Assembly: GCF_000006405.1 (NCBI RefSeq)
Contig: NW_003210538.1
Location: 132,653-196,652, forward strand
Length of the DNA: 64,000 bases
From: Perkinsus marinus ATCC 50983
Lineage: Eukaryota > Perkinsozoa > Perkinsida > Perkinsidae
Direction of reading: 5' to 3'
The notes under the pieces: generated by a model
What the model was told of the DNA's origin: nothing
The model's input: the letters and a program-made list of their open reading frames with translations, nothing else
The model's database searches: none
Position numbers and translations under genes: made by a program
Part shown: positions 45,871-59,200 of the stretch, piece after piece
Numbering within the stretch: the stretch's first letter is position 1
Layout: each line of letters opens with the position of its first letter

Positions 45871-48800
45871 TCATCTGAGGAACCTAATAGAGAACAAAAC
45901 TGAACCTTGGTGAACCATCGACACGCTCACTTCGCAATTGTGCAGTCGCATGACTTCTACCCTTCCCGTGCTATCCCCTGCTACCAGCACAGGAGAAGTG
46001 GGGGCGAACCCGACTGACACTGCGCGATGCCAACGATCGTGTCCGAGGTCATTGACAGGATAATGCACCTTAAAAAATGATAGGTAGCTGCACTAAGCTG
46101 GACAGAAGCTCACTATGATGGGGTCCAATGGGCTCCTGTGTATATCCCACAGCTCCACTCTGCCATCATCCATCACTCCGGCAAAGCACGTAGAGTTGTG
46201 GGGGCACCAAGAGATATCATTGACCTAAGCTGAGAAAGTCCCATAGTGTACTCACAGCGAAGAATACCGCATCGCAAAGATCCGTTGATTGATAGTTCTG
46301 TAAGGGAGTATTTGTGGCTATTCCAATTCTTTCAAAGGCGGCCGAGTCAGCGCGTTTGACCATATAACTGCTGCTACCTATGCGGAGGGGTCCGAGGTGA
46401 TAACAGGAAATTAATGGTCCCACTACCACGACGCGCTTCCATCGGTATGGACTTGGTGGACCATAGCTTCATGGTCCAATCAGCACTACAGGTGAGGAAG
46501 GCCGGCAGCCAGAAGGGATTACATCGCACCTGCACGCATGCTCAGGGCCTCCTAGGAGATACAGTGCAACCTTATAAACAGCAGCTGCATGGCCGTGGTA
46601 GGTCTCCAGGTAGTGTTCGTTATAGCTCGTAGAGCAGCGATGGACCAGCCCATCACTAGTCCCGACCAAATACATAGACGGATCTTGCTTCAAAAAGTCC
46701 ACACAGAAGCCGCAGCTTTGCCTAACTTGAGCTCATCACTCACACTCCAACTCCGCTCACCTGAATGCCAGTCCGTCCTGACGACTCCTCCCCCCGCTGT
46801 CCTGCGCCCCCGTATTGAGGACGTTGGTAGCGAGATCTGGGTTGGCCGATCGCTTCAGCGACATAAGCACTGCCCGTTCTAGTCCCTAGCAGAGAAAGGA
46901 TGCATTACAGACCCTCTACAGGTGCCCGGAGATGATCTACTGATAGGAGCCTAAGATTGCCAGCCGTCTCACCTTCCGCATGTCCCATTGTATAACCTTA
47001 CCATCAGCCCCGACCGATATAAGGTTCTCCCTCGGGAACTTATCAGGCCCCCTATCAACCTGGGAGCGGCACTGTAGTGATGCTACACTAAAGCCAATGA
47101 CTGTACCCATTGTATGTCCCACACCACATCAGTATGCCTGCTCGCTACGTTCGATATCGGACCTCCGCCCTGCTGATGCTGACCACCACTACCCCGTTGC
47201 TGGGCTCCTCCAGCCGACGCTCCAGATTGCGTCGCGGAACTGAGTATCTACATAGCACCACTCTCCTCGAGGTACGTAGTAGGATTATAAGCTGACAGGT
47301 GAGTCGGCTTTCTGACGGAGGTCCCAAATTGCAAGGCCGCCATCCTGCATACCAACTGCTAGCAAGTTGGGGTACGTATCGCTGAATGCCACAGATGAGA
47401 CCTGATGAATAAATAGGAAGGACGGTATCACTAGATAAATGTGTATCTACCCCGGCTGTGGTCTTGAGGGCACGTTCCGGGTAGAAGGGGTTTTTGAGAC
47501 TCCAGAACAGTACTGCTCCACCGCCGGAGGCTTTCCATGTGGTATCACAGTTCCCTGGAGAGAAGCCGGGCATCGCGAATCATTACTCTGTATCCAGTCA
47601 CGAACCATAGGATGCACAGAGGAGGTCCTGGTTGAACTGATGCCACTTGAGATTGGTTACGGATAACCCATGAGTTAGGGACGTTGCTTCGAAAGTGAAG
47701 AGATGCTGAGGGCGATAGTAAGCAGGCGTCGTCTTAGGGAGGCTACCATCACCTCCATGCTGGACTTAACGTCACCATCCTGCTCAGTGTCATCCTCTTC
47801 CTGCTCGGTCTCTTCAGGAGTCACATCTGGCTTGACCTCAGATTGTTCAGGAGTTGCGCTCTCTCGGCGAGATGGAACTTGCAACTGGTTCGGATCTTGG
47901 GCGCCTCTGAAGCGGTTTCACCATTGTGAGCATCAGCGCACATTTCGGCGAAACCATTGATCTCGCCCGAATCACTCTGCGCGGAATCGAATCTGATTAT
48001 CGAGGGGCTCACTTGTTAGATAGGGCAGATGACCTTCGACTGGCCGAAGGGTCAACAGCGTTAGAAAGAGGGAAGCTATCGATAAACTTCTGTTCTCTCT
48101 CGGCCAGTTGGGCGAGTGTTGGATAATTACGGTATCTAACGGCCGATTGGAAAACCGTCTATGCTAGAATGTCTACAGAAGATGGGCGTTGTGATATTCG
48201 TTTTGGCTTAGAGTTCTCTCCATCACCCTGGCCGCTTCCCGTAGCTCGATAGGTATCAATAGGTTGCTGCCCATAACCCATCGTAGGGCAGGGGCATCCT
48301 CCTGAGTAGCCGCAGTCATCGCATGCACTGCGAGTATCAGCGTACCCGCTCCGTTTCCACTGCTTGCTTATCTTCGACGGCCCCTCCTGAAATCACGTCA
48401 TTCTCAAACACGTCAGGCGGATCCACGAACCATCTTGATCTCTACGGAGGAGTGCGCTCTCTTCGACTAGCTTCTCAGAGTTGCCTGCTCCCATGCCTCG
48501 AGTCAACTTCTTGGGCGAACTAGATCGATTGCCCTGCCCACCGAGGCATGCTATCGTCCACATCACGTAGTTGCGTAGTTACCCCCTTCGTGGAGCTGCC
48601 CTTCTTAGATTGAGCAGCAGTGGTCCTCGAGGTCTCCTTGGCAACATGGGAGAGGATTGCCTCAGAGGAGGTCTCGAGTAGACATCCAGGCTTGGCTAGA
48701 GATTCCGTGGACTGAGAATCGGAATGTGATCGTGCTCACGCCGTGATGGAGGTCGTACGGTCTCCTCAACATTCCGTTGACATTCGATCTGGATCTGCAA

Positions 48801-49694
48801 GTCGGTCGGAACAAGCTCTTCTCTGAAGCTGTCATGTATATCCCAAACAGATGCATTAACTCCGAGCGACGAGGTTGCTAAAATGAAAAAATACTGGAAC
48901 CGAGAATCGAACTCGGGACCTACTGCGTGTTAGGCAGTCGTCATAACCAACTAGACCATTCCAGCGATGCTCAAAAACGAAATAAACAAGTGAGAACGAG
49001 ATGAACAGTCATGTGCCCTCATATCGACAATGTCAACTCACACTGGCCGATCACAACTCCCTCACCTGGTGGATCCGTGAAGGTCTCCTTCATCTTCTGA
49101 GGATAGTTCAGAGTTTGCGCATGCTGGCCTCGGAACTGATCAGGTGCGTTCTGCTTGCGGTTCAACAGAGCCTCGTAGTTCTCATTCTCGGCGATTATCT
49201 GGACACAACCAGGACTTTCCAATTACCGTGCTGAATGACTTACCTTGTCGTACGTCTCCTGTCCTTCACTTGCCGCGACGCTGGGTATATCAATAAGAAC
49301 TGTCGTTGGCGTCTCCGTAAGTCTTATCTCTATCATCCGCTCTTCCCGGGATTTGACCTGATACGAGAGATTCAAGACTTGCAACAAGTCGTTCTCAGCA
49401 GCTCCTCAGAGCGTTGCCTACGCGCCCAATGAGAATGGAGATTTACCTGTGCTCTTTGGAGGGAATGCGATCCCAACGATATGTTCTTGGGGGTATCCCT
49501 GATATACCCATCAATGAGCTTCACCTCAATACAAAAGCTCTCTACGATGAATGCCGCTTTCGTTCTTCCACTTGTCTAAGTTCCTCCTTCAACTCTTCCA
49601 TCACTTTCCGTGGCATTGTCTTCAGTACGGTCTCCTGTTGATCCTCCTGCTGTGGTGCGCTCAGAGGTTTCGGCGTAACGTCGCGACTGCACAT
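45871..49694 (-). CDS. DNAI1: Axonemal outer-arm dynein intermediate chain DNAI1/IC1-type (WD40)
   Basis: Many exons. ATG at 49694 (MCSRDVTPKPLSAPQQED), a helical N-terminus, then DQFRGQHAQTLNYPQKMKET and FTDPP, matching IC1's 'NQFNFSERAAQTLNYP-RDRETFTEPP'. That exon is joined across a 188-nt intron (48878-49065) to ATSSLGVNASVWDIHDSF (IC1 'TQWEIYDEY'). WD40 region: GGGAVLFWSLKNPFYPERAL; WDMRK (46985); DFLKQDPSMYLVGTSDGLVH then RCSTSYNEHYLETYHGHAAA (IC1 'YLVGTEEG-I-RCSKAYSSQYL-TY-GH'); ISWCPHNSTCFAGVMDDGRV ELWDIH; and PVLVAGDSTGRVEVMRL ('IVGDDRG-V-SLKLS') before the stop at 45871. The protein anchors the outer dynein arm and binds LC8, which is also encoded nearby. A tRNA-Val gene lies inside the 188-nt intron. 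Some middle exons are only roughly placed. Confidence 0.85.
48892..48965 (-). tRNA. tRNA-Val (AAC), inside a DNAI1 intron
   Basis: 74 nt including discriminator A. Acceptor GCTGGAA pairs with TTCCAGT (first pair G-U); D-arm TGGTCTAGTTGGTTATGACG; anticodon arm ACTGC-CTAACAC-GCAGT gives anticodon AAC; T-arm CCGAGTTCGATTCTCGG. It is followed at once by TTTTTTC, a Pol III terminator. No tRNA intron. It lies in the sense direction within the DNAI1 intron 48878-49065, and the terminator merges with the intron's 3' splice site (TTTTTTCATTTTAG). Confidence 0.95.
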
Positions 49695-56200: not shown

Positions 56201-59200
56201 GCATCGCCAAGTTGGTCTATGCCCCGACGGGAGCTCTGCATAGTAGGGTTATCGAGGTGAGGTCGACTGTAGATGGACAAGCTCGAATTCACAATGGATA
56301 TCTTGTCTCAGATCAATGACGACAGCGACAAAGTGTTCGTCTATAACTGTGAAGGCGTCTCATCGGACATCGCCGTTCAAGGCACTTCGTACACCGTCAA
56401 GGCAAGGCCTCGGCGCATCGGGTCTCTCGATAACCCTCCCTTATTGAACTATCAACACCCTCAAAGGCCATCGAATTATCTATACAGGTTTTGTGTGGAA
56501 CTTCCACTGTTCACGTAACCTTTCCCAGCCAAGAACTTGGAGTTGCTTTCGCTCGCTATTTCGGCGGCATGCACAACGCTAATGTAAGCATAAGAACATT
56601 TATGCAATCACTAGGCGAGTCTAGCTACCACTGCTGCGCGGTATCACAGAAAATCATCACAGTATGTTATCATGCAGATTGAATCTGATGCGGAGTTCAT
56701 CGGATCGTGTCCGAGTGCCGTCATTGGCACCGGTGGTGTTCACGAGTTGAAACACGCTCGGCTGCGAGAAGAGACAGGCACCGGTGAAGTGAAGAGGATT
56801 CTTGTTGTGAGACACTTCCAAGCACGTTTGAGTCTTGCGGAATTTCAACCTTGTGAGGTTCACGGAGAAGAGAAAGAGCTCAGCTGTTCTAACATTGTGA
56901 ACCCTCCACAGTTCGATGACGGTGTGTACAAGATATCAGTCATTTGTGAATCGAAGCCTGTCACGATCACTTGCACGGACTCCGATCCAGCTGTGCTCCT
57001 CGCCACTAGATGGGGTGCATATCCTCGTTCGGAGGTCAGTTTTCTAACCGAGAGGCTGGGGGGCATTAGTTACGATGTTTCTATTCAGCTCGGAGTTGAG
57101 CTCTATCCTGGAGTGTGTTCGAGCGCTCGACTGGGGAATGACGAAGGTTGGACTGTCACACGACAGACCGTCACCATGACAGGAGCAAGCAGGAGTTTCG
57201 TGGTAGGTCTACATTAAAGTGGCAACATAACTTTTTCGGAGCGCCTTGGTTACTCTCGCACTCTTGCACAGCTCCGGTGGCTCAATCGGATAGAGCGTTG
57301 GACTTCTAATCCAAAGGTTGCGGGTTCAAGTCCCGCCCGGAGTATTTTTTCTGTTCATCCTCTATCCTCGAGTTGCAGGTTGAGAAGGCTGGAACTTCCA
57401 CCCAAGTCACTTGCGACGGGCTGCAGCAAAATCCACAAATCGTATCTGATGGAGTCGAAATAAGCATTGACTGCCGTGAGGGAAGTTCTGGAACCCCTAA
57501 GAAGGTGAGATGTGGGTAGACAAACGGGGAACTTGATTTTTTGTGGTGATTTATTTTACTTTTACGACTGAATGCGTAGTGATACGAATATTTCAGTTGG
57601 AACTGCTCTGCAGTACTCCGTTCGACGCTATCAGGGTATGCAAAGGACCTCTGTTTGAGAAACAAGATGCTGTGGTGAGTCTAGGTGTATCCTTTCCTGT
57701 GGGTACCTGTCATCAGGTGGAAGTCGGCAGCAGAGTTCGCAGCGCCTGCGACACTGTCACAGTCTCTGGTCAGTCGACATCGATGCACCTGACATCAGCA
57801 AGCATACAGGGCACGACTGTGGTCGTCGATGTAGGGTATCGGCTCATTCTCTTCTGGCTACTTCCCATCTCTAGGTTGCGGCTGCTGATGAGTCGAACGC
57901 ACAACAGTTCTCTTGCACACATTTCTTTGGATCTCCCGAGGCCACTGATCATCAGACTCTCGTTCTCCGTGCGCAGTGCGGAGAGGAGGTGGATCATACG
58001 AAACCAGGAAGATCCTAACTGGCAACCACCTCCCTTAGATATTAAACTTTGAATGCAAGGACACGGCTGCGGCGCTGCAGCTAGCTACGTTTGGGCAGAT
58101 CGACCAGCCAGCAGTAAGTCGATCGTGTACGTTAGGAAAGTCACAGTCTATATTGTAGATCGCCCTCCAGCAAGGATTGATCAACTCTTGCGCTGAGGTG
58201 AAACAGGAAGGTATTTCGAATGCATTCACTCTATCAAAGGTGACACGTGAGTTGGAATCTGTCGAGTTGTATGTTAAACTGGTAGGCTACGTACCGGCCT
58301 AGCTTCGTGAAGACATCGGGTTACTCCTTCGTCATTGGCTCGGAGCAGGATCTTAAAAGATGGTTAACGGTACGGAGGCCATGTTCCCGGGGATGAGACC
58401 GATTTCGACAGATTACACTGAGAAACGATGACGAGCCGGGTTACGAAGACTCTGACTTTTTGCTCTCCTGCAACGCCGTGGGCTCTTCACCAGAGCCACT
58501 CTCCGCCCTTGATAGGAGCGCTGACAAGTACAAAGTAACCGTGGACTGTGAAAGCGCTCGAGGAACGGGTGGGAACACCAAAGTAGAGGTAGGTGCGGTA
58601 ACTATCACCATTTTGTTGGATAAATTGAACATCAGGTGTTATGTGATGATTTCCATAACGCCATGCAACTTGCTACAGTTTGGGGCTCTCTGGATAGTTC
58701 ACAACCGGTAGGTTCCGCTACATCAACGCTCCATCTGTCGCACTTCCAATCTGTAGGCGAATATAGAGTTGAAAAGCCTGCATACTCATCTGAAGGCAGC
58801 ATGGCTTGACACTACGAAAGTGGAACCCGATACGGTTCGCATGTTCGTCGCGCGCCCCGAGGGAGAAAAGGACGAGGGAAGCATCCTTCAGGCAAGTCTA
58901 GAAGCCGTGGAGAGGAGAGACTCTTTCCTTTTTTAGATTCGCTCAAGCTCCTACAAGTGCGACCCTAATGCAGCGCACCGCGTTTACTTCAAGCAATTCT
59001 TCTACTATGTTACTATGCATTGTAACGAGCTTTCACAGGATAAGGTCACCCTGGGGGAGCCACACAAGGTGACGCTCATTGCCAACAATGAAGAGGCTGC
59101 GCTCACTATCGCGCGAGCCTTTGCTAAGATACCTGTTGACAAGGTAAGAACTATTCGTTATTGTTGAACTCCCACTGTCAAGTGTGCCTTGCTGAAAATC

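What the first reader, a model, noticed from the sequence alone, without database searches (positions are those of the whole stretch)
48878..49065. tRNA-Val gene nested in a DNAI1 intron, its terminator continuous with the 3' splice site
The intact tRNA-Val(AAC) is in sense inside a 188-nt intron whose boundaries are fixed by strong protein conservation (FTDPP joined to ATSSLGVNASVWDIHDSF). Directly after the tRNA's discriminator comes TTTTTTCATTTTAG and then the exon, so one T-rich tract appears to serve both as Pol III terminator and as polypyrimidine tract/acceptor. Host pre-mRNA transcription through a tRNA, and Pol III transcription through the intron, would compete or cooperate.
Basis: partly seen in the sequence, partly recalled or inferred. 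Interest (0 to 1): 0.75.

Follow-up and report, generated by a model that had tools for sequence, protein, structure and literature searches.

The report
tRNA gene fused to splice site
In the oyster parasite Perkinsus a complete tRNA gene sits inside an intron of a flagellar motor gene so that the tract ending the tRNA gene runs straight into the signal ending the intron, and a similar layout appears in several other genes of this genome, which makes the interplay of two RNA polymerases and the splicing machinery testable.

Summary
ARAGORN and Rfam (64.5 bits) call an intact tRNA-Val(AAC) at 48965-48892(-), inside a GT-AG intron 49065-48878 whose junction (FTDPP|ATSSLGVNAS) is ungapped in 97 of 98 homologues that span it (112 found). 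Trailer: TTTTTTCATTTTAG, then exon. The genome is Perkinsus, almost certainly P. marinus (34 copies of its published spliced leader). The host is not DNAI1 but a DNAI4/WDR78/IC138-like inner-arm chain. The second haplotype keeps the layout with an identical tRNA. It recurs: among 72 tRNA locus clusters, sense tRNAs end 9-14 nt before the acceptor in three genes with homology across the junction (dynein chain, class III cyclase, NME7-like), 18 nt in one with repeat-level support (104-nt intron, 73-nt tRNA), and 16 nt in a weak fifth. At a strict score a gene-finder gave 4 of 64 tight sense cases and 0 of 64 antisense, against 0.95 and 0.07 with mispaired flanks; at lenient scores the excess is small. 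Intronic tRNAs are known (C. elegans), so this is a new variant of a known kind: terminator and acceptor fused, the tRNA sometimes filling most of the intron. No RNA evidence was available; dual use of the T-tract is inference.

The parts
48878..49065 (-). 188-nt spliceosomal intron of the DNAI4/IC138-like gene that holds the tRNA gene (GTGAGG...TTTTAG)
   Evidence: Read; junction protein ungapped in 97 of 98 spanning homologues. A gene-finder that may put exons over the tRNA chose an acceptor inside it; with the tRNA barred from exons it chose this acceptor but a donor 24 nt further downstream.
49060..49065 (-). 5' splice site GTGAGG
   Evidence: fixed by phase and by the homologous proteins. 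GTGAGA in the second haplotype.
48892..48965 (-). tRNA-Val(AAC) gene, intact
   Evidence: ARAGORN; Rfam 64.5 bits.
48947..48958 (-). internal A box TGGTCTAGTTGG (consensus recalled, not from a call)
   Evidence: Sequence.
48904..48914 (-). internal B box GAGTTCGATTC (consensus recalled)
   Evidence: Sequence.
48929..48933 (-). CTAAC in the anticodon loop: branch-point-like by recalled consensus, untested
   Evidence: Sequence; inference only.
48886..48891 (-). T6 run directly after the discriminator: Pol III terminator and start of the polypyrimidine tract (dual use inferred)
   Evidence: identical in the second haplotype.
48878..48881 (-). 3' splice site TTAG, 14 nt after the tRNA end
   Evidence: junction supported.
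49066..49198 (-). upstream exon (IIAENENYEALL...FTDPP)
   Evidence: Homology; preceding intron 49243-49199.
48759..48877 (-). downstream exon (ATSSLGVNASVWDIHDSF...); its 3' end was set by eye against P0002
   Evidence: Homology. The P. chesapeaki partial protein P0002 begins TTSIGVNAS, that is at the first full codon of this exon.
57271..57344 (+). second tRNA of the window, tRNA-Arg(TCT), apparently sense inside an intron of another gene; acceptor 34 nt downstream
57203..57378 (+). 176-nt predicted intron around that tRNA-Arg (SRSFV|VEKAGTS, phase 0), from locus L013 positions 1433-1608
   Evidence: the 78% identical paralogue keeps the tRNA in the same predicted intron.

Best explanation
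A working Pol III tRNA-Val(AAC) gene lies in sense inside a spliceosomal intron of the axonemal DNAI4/IC138-like gene of P. marinus, placed so that its T6 terminator is also the pyrimidine tract of the intron's 3' splice site. Shown: intact tRNA, intron limits by homology, fused T-tract and acceptor, presence in both haplotypes, similar cases in other genes. Inferred: Pol III starts at the internal boxes and stops in the T-run, giving an ordinary pre-tRNA; Pol II reads through, and the spliceosome uses the same U-tract and the AG 9-18 nt after the tRNA. Inferred: tRNA genes landed in the short introns typical of this genome, and those next to the acceptor are tolerated in sense because their terminator supplies or preserves the pyrimidine tract. 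In the shortest case (104 nt, 13-nt leader) the branch point would have to lie within the tRNA, so splicing and tRNA folding should exclude each other on one transcript.
For: Intact tRNA. Junction by homology. Haplotype copy. Other cases: class III cyclase, Pfam PF00211 E 5.8e-23 across the joined exons, trailer TTTTTTCCTCAG; NME7-like, PDB E 2.7e-14 across the junction with one extra residue there, trailer CTTTTTCAG after the Rfam end; uncharacterised gene on C153, 104-nt intron, trailer TTTTTCTTGGTTTTTCAG, internal-repeat BLAST E 2.4e-4 across the junction; a gene on C343 with a predicted kinase domain upstream, in frame but otherwise weak. Gene-finder at score gain >=35 with acceptor <=20 nt: 4 of 64 sense, 0 of 64 antisense; mispaired flanks 0.95 and 0.07 per 64. 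Paralogous hosts of tRNA-Arg(TCT) differ at 61 of 300 and 29 of 126 exon positions, 33 of 68 leader and 14 of 34 trailer positions but 0 of 74 tRNA positions, which fits a tRNA kept functional in an intron. P. marinus introns run 39 to 1622 bp, mostly under 100 (PMC3101222, passages).
Against: No RNA evidence for transcription of this tRNA copy or for the splice. Without the distance limit the gene-finder shows little orientation bias (gain >=35: 4 sense, 2 antisense, mispaired 1.9 and 1.7), and at gain >=10 with acceptor <=20 it gives 6 sense and 3 antisense against 3.19 and 1.69; an open-frame test alone gave 9 sense, 6 antisense of 67, mispaired mean 5.35, max 8. Tight cases were first picked partly by eye for T-run plus YAG, so their T-run excess (first run >=4 in 5 of 5 against 12 of 64 loci outside my tight and intronic lists; counted, test) is circular in part. 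An in-frame alternative acceptor GTAG lies inside the tRNA and would add 14 residues. RNA folding did not favour the cloverleaf in the DNAI4 or NME7-like introns. Identity of tRNA copies can also come from gene conversion.
Confidence: 0.6

Rival explanations
1. Mirtron-like route: the tRNA is cut by RNase P and RNase Z out of the host Pol II transcript or the debranched intron, so its expression follows the host gene; Pol III contributes little.
For: In the tightest case the excised intron would be just a 13-nt leader, the 73-nt tRNA and an 18-nt U-rich trailer. The idea is raised but untested for C. elegans intronic tRNAs (PMC4999229, passages); Drosophila RNase P RNA is made from a host intron by Pol II (PMC4287351, passages).
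Against: A and B boxes and a T-run of 4-7 are kept; the Drosophila RNase P RNA genes, by contrast, lack Pol III signals. An antisense intronic tRNA exists in this genome too (L073 in a PP2C gene), which splicing cannot release.
Confidence: 0.15
2. Neutral coincidence: tRNA genes land in introns at random in both orientations; the T-run is only a terminator, and a nearby AG serves as acceptor without functional coupling.
For: Both orientations occur: apparently sense in an acyl-CoA dehydrogenase gene, near a globin-like gene and in the Arg-TCT host genes; antisense in a PP2C gene and apparently in a DAAF9-like gene. In the open-frame test 58 of 67 clusters show no tight sense candidate. C. elegans intronic tRNAs are no more frequent than expected by chance (PMC4999229, passages).
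Against: Tight cases at the strict score: 4 of 64 sense, 0 of 64 antisense, three with homology across the junction. Even then the T-tract must act as polypyrimidine tract, since in the NME7-like case only CTTTTTCAG lies between tRNA and exon.
Confidence: 0.2
3. The exon model is wrong and the acceptor lies inside the tRNA (for example GTAG at tRNA positions 43-46), so the tRNA partly codes for protein.
For: The frame is open through the T-loop (ORF 48929-48696), and the first gene-finder preferred an acceptor in the tRNA.
Against: No insertion at the junction in any of the 98 spanning homologues, nor in the three displayed PDB alignments. The P. chesapeaki partial protein begins at the exon after TTTTAG.
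Confidence: 0.05

Closest known systems
Intronic tRNA genes of Caenorhabditis elegans (PMC4999229; passages read)
   Same: Nuclear tRNA genes nested in introns of protein-coding genes; 44% of 609 tRNA genes, 56% of the intronic ones in the host's orientation.
   Different: The passages I read describe no fusion of tRNA terminator with the host 3' splice site and no intron mostly made of tRNA.
nimtRNAs of human introns (PMC7722341; passages read)
   Same: tRNA-like sequences in introns that influence splicing of the host.
   Different: Mitochondrial-derived look-alikes, acting best near the 5' splice site in reporters; here nuclear tRNA genes next to the 3' splice site.
Intron-embedded RNase P RNA of insects and crustaceans (PMC4287351; passages read)
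   Same: A normally Pol III RNA nested in sense in a host intron.
   Different: [quoted passage not shown] here boxes and T-run remain.
Mirtrons (recalled; named in PMC4999229)
   Same: A small RNA whose ends nearly coincide with intron ends.
   Different: No evidence that splicing makes the tRNA ends; the tRNA 3' end lies 9-18 nt inside the intron.

Membership tests
Nuclear tRNA gene | Full covariance-model match with anticodon | tested here: met
   ARAGORN; Rfam RF00005 64.5 bits, model 1-71.
Nuclear tRNA gene | Internal promoter boxes and T-run terminator | tested here: met
   Sequence (TGGTCTAGTTGG, GAGTTCGATTC, T6); consensus recalled.
Nuclear tRNA gene | Transcribed and processed | not testable with these tools
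   No RNA data on hand.
[quoted passage not shown]
   By protein homology across the junction.
Intronic (nested) tRNA gene | Spliced in vivo across the tRNA | not testable with these tools
   No RNA-seq on hand.
DNAI1 (outer-arm dynein intermediate chain 1) | Closest full-length relatives are DNAI1 orthologues | tested here: not met
   112 homologues: the two best are named inner arm I1 intermediate chain (P. marinus) and WD repeat domain 78 (P. chesapeaki); names further down include Dynein axonemal intermediate chain 4; no printed name reads DNAI1, though some are cut short and many records have none. The short junction peptide alone scored best against Chlamydomonas IC78.
Mirtron-like RNA | RNA ends made by splicing | not testable with these tools
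   Would need small-RNA ends and a splicing block.

The most novel reading that the evidence does not exclude
P. marinus has a class of tRNA-filled introns in which the tRNA gene supplies the intron's body, branch point (CTAAT in the D arm of tRNA-Arg(TCG), CTAAC in the anticodon loop of tRNA-Val(AAC)) and, through its Pol III terminator, the polypyrimidine tract. Each host transcript must then choose between folding as a tRNA and being spliced, linking tRNA supply to expression of flagellar and signalling genes.
Probability: 0.18. Interest if true: 0.85.

Novelty: new variant of a known kind. Interest (0 to 1): 0.58.

Why it matters
One short tract would have to satisfy Pol III termination and 3' splice-site recognition at once, and in the shortest intron the tRNA takes up 73 of 104 nt. 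That gives natural test cases for how Pol II passes an active Pol III gene, whether tRNA folding competes with spliceosome assembly, and whether introns can shelter or shape tRNA genes. It also warns annotators: the gene-finder that I wrote put an acceptor inside the tRNA, and the P. marinus protein that the search returned lacks this part of the gene.

Tried and rejected
Pseudogene or decayed tRNA: rejected. Read-through of the intron in the upstream exon's frame: rejected, a stop lies in the leader. Single-codon coding score for the tRNA flanks: too weak to classify. Open-frame test: no clear excess. Reading 3.3 kb of the host region in one frame with stops as X against Pfam: no family. Empty-site comparison for the C153 gene: two paralogous stretches (75-78%) align only from within the exon after the tRNA intron and carry stops, so no empty site. 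Search for homologues of the C153 protein: none at E <= 0.001 among 7997 scored candidates. RNA folding of introns: inconclusive, the energy model does not fold even the isolated tRNA-Val as a cloverleaf; the row labelled L066 took a neighbouring tRNA-Thr by mistake and is not used, and the 'tight' class of that call holds that tRNA-Thr locus (L054) wrongly, so I count five tight loci and not six. ARAGORN adds one base at each end of the C153 tRNA and one at the 3' end of the C137 tRNA; the lengths given here follow the Rfam ends, while scripts used ARAGORN's. One search failed by an index error and was redone. The 5' leader dinucleotide CA was not more frequent at the loci listed as intronic (5 of 9, the L054 row included, against 39 of 63). 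A branch-point consensus of Perkinsus introns was not derived. Genomic DNA of other Perkinsus species was not available here, so presence or absence of the tRNA in relatives is untested.

Full report
What is there. On the minus strand the window holds an intact tRNA-Val(AAC) at 48965-48892 (ARAGORN; Rfam 64.5 bits, model 1-71). It lies in a GT-AG intron, 49065-48878, 188 nt, phase 1.

Organism and host gene. The genome (G000, 54.5 Mb, 347 contigs, unnamed) holds 34 exact copies of CCGTAGCCATCTTGGCTCAAG and none of the reversed control. This is the published P. marinus leader PmaSL1 without its first base (PMC3101222 and PMC9399869, passages). The best protein match is a P. marinus ATCC 50983 protein (P0001, 392 residues); a spliced alignment to the window scored 726 of 784 after penalties for 11 introns, which by my reckoning leaves about one mismatch, so the species is almost certainly P. 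marinus. The host is named inner arm I1 dynein intermediate chain, WD repeat 78 or DNAI4 in relatives; no printed name reads DNAI1, though some names are cut short and many records have none. The short junction peptide alone scores best against Chlamydomonas IC78. P0001 is N-terminally truncated and lacks the region of the tRNA intron; the P. chesapeaki protein P0002 is partial and begins at the first full codon of the exon after it.

Are the intron limits right? The joined peptide ...KETFTDPP|ATSSLGVNASVWDIHDSF... aligns without a gap in the three PDB alignments shown. Of 112 homologues 98 span the junction by BLAST; 97 are ungapped within 8 columns, one has a deletion, none an insertion (25 rows displayed). 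An in-frame alternative acceptor (GTAG inside the tRNA) would insert 14 residues. My first gene-finder nevertheless chose an acceptor inside the tRNA; with the tRNA barred from exons it chose TTTTAG, but with a donor 24 nt downstream of the one that homology supports.

The other haplotype. Contig C70 carries the same region (97% over 221 bases), including the neighbouring tRNA-Arg. Between haplotypes the tRNA differs at 0 of 74 positions, the trailer at 0 of 14, the leader at 5 of 100, the upstream exon at 1 of 133 and the downstream exon at 7 of 119, gaps counted.

Is it unique? I collected tRNA loci by the Rfam family (63 of 4410 first-look candidates were scored), by this locus (34 matches), by tRNA-Arg(TCG) (14 matches) and by tRNA-Lys (48 matches). 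Not every match was fetched: parts of the tandem arrays and many tRNA-Lys matches were left out. The fetched regions gave 149 ARAGORN calls in 72 clusters. Tight sense cases, trailer lengths by Rfam ends where Rfam listed the locus and by ARAGORN otherwise: the dynein gene (14 nt); a class III cyclase on C215/C231 (12 nt, TTTTTTCCTCAG; Pfam PF00211 E 5.8e-23 over the joined exons); an NME7-like gene on C137 (9 nt, CTTTTTCAG; PDB E 2.7e-14 with one extra residue at the junction); an uncharacterised gene on C153 (18 nt; 13-nt leader + 73-nt tRNA-Arg + TTTTTCTTGGTTTTTCAG, 104 nt in all; no homologues at E <= 0.001, but an internal repeat aligns across the junction, E 2.4e-4); and a gene on C343 with a predicted kinase domain upstream (16 nt; in frame only, and the gene-finder preferred another acceptor).

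Controls. In 64 clusters with 700-nt flanks the gene-finder gave, at score gain >=35 and acceptor <=20 nt, 4 sense and 0 antisense cases; mispaired flanks gave 0.95 and 0.07 per 64. Without the distance limit the figures were 4 and 2 against 1.9 and 1.7. At gain >=10 with the limit they were 6 and 3 against 3.19 and 1.69 (all). So the excess rests on the strong cases, three of which also have homology across the junction. An open-frame test alone was not decisive (9 sense, 6 antisense of 67, mispaired mean 5.35, max 8). Looser intronic tRNAs seem to occur in both orientations: sense in an acyl-CoA dehydrogenase gene, antisense in a PP2C gene (Pfam E 5.6e-21 over the joined exons) and apparently in a DAAF9-like gene.

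Signs of function. The tRNA-Arg(TCT) of this window (57271-57344) also appears to lie in a sense intron. A paralogous host differs at 61 of 300 and 29 of 126 exon positions, 33 of 68 leader and 14 of 34 trailer positions, yet the tRNA differs at 0 of 74. This fits selection on the tRNA, or gene conversion among tRNA copies. T-runs of at least 4 directly after the tRNA occur in 5 of 5 tight loci and in 12 of 64 loci outside my tight and intronic lists (counted; Fisher test, p 5.5e-4), but I had picked the tight loci partly by that feature.

Mechanism. Published P. marinus introns run 39-1622 bp, mostly under 100 (PMC3101222, passages). Without the tRNA the C153 intron would be 31 nt and the C343 intron 35 nt, below that range; the cyclase and NME7-like introns would be 60 and 55 nt. 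I infer that tRNA genes entered short introns near their 3' ends, or introns shrank around them, and that in sense the terminator can serve as polypyrimidine tract. In the C153 intron the leader leaves little room for a branch point and the best candidate lies inside the tRNA (CTAAT in the D arm; consensus recalled), which predicts that splicing and tRNA folding exclude each other. None of this is shown by RNA.

Known ground. C. elegans keeps 44% of 609 tRNA genes in introns, 56% of these in the host's orientation; that paper raises, without testing, tRNAs spliced out like mirtrons (PMC4999229, passages). Human intronic tRNA look-alikes alter splicing (PMC7722341, passages). Insect RNase P RNA genes lie in host introns and lack Pol III signals (PMC4287351, passages). 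My searches listed no paper whose title or shown abstract start reports a tRNA terminator fused to a host acceptor, or intronic tRNAs in Perkinsus; the lists were capped and the library lacks most subscription journals.

Verdict. A real arrangement, seen with homology support in three genes of this genome and with weaker support in two; a new variant of intronic tRNA genes. The dual use of the T-tract is likely but unproven.

Noticed in passing
57203-57378 (+): The other tRNA of the window, tRNA-Arg(TCT), also appears to be in a sense intron (phase 0, acceptor 34 nt downstream), in a gene without a named family; the 78% identical paralogue on C223/C267 keeps the tRNA in the same predicted intron.
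   Followed up: partly
G000 contigs C56, C282, C9, C69, C197 (loci L007, L008, L072, L076): Tandem arrays of tRNA genes: Val AAC/CAC on C56, alternating Cys and Arg(CCT) units of about 373 bases on C282 and C9, Lys on C69 and C197.
   Followed up: no
L079 and L088: tRNA-Lys in an acyl-CoA dehydrogenase intron; the closely similar copy on C243 carries a degenerate tRNA.
   Followed up: partly
L073; L050: tRNA-Ile antisense in a PP2C intron and tRNA-Val(CAC) apparently antisense in a DAAF9-like gene.
   Followed up: partly
L031, within about 150 nt upstream of the tRNA-Thr: By eye, a decayed tRNA-Thr-like stretch beside an intact tRNA-Thr near a globin-like gene.
   Followed up: no
45880-49300 (-): The P. 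marinus protein P0001 for this gene is N-truncated; its start MPGFSPG falls in what appears to be an intron, so that model misses several exons.
   Followed up: partly
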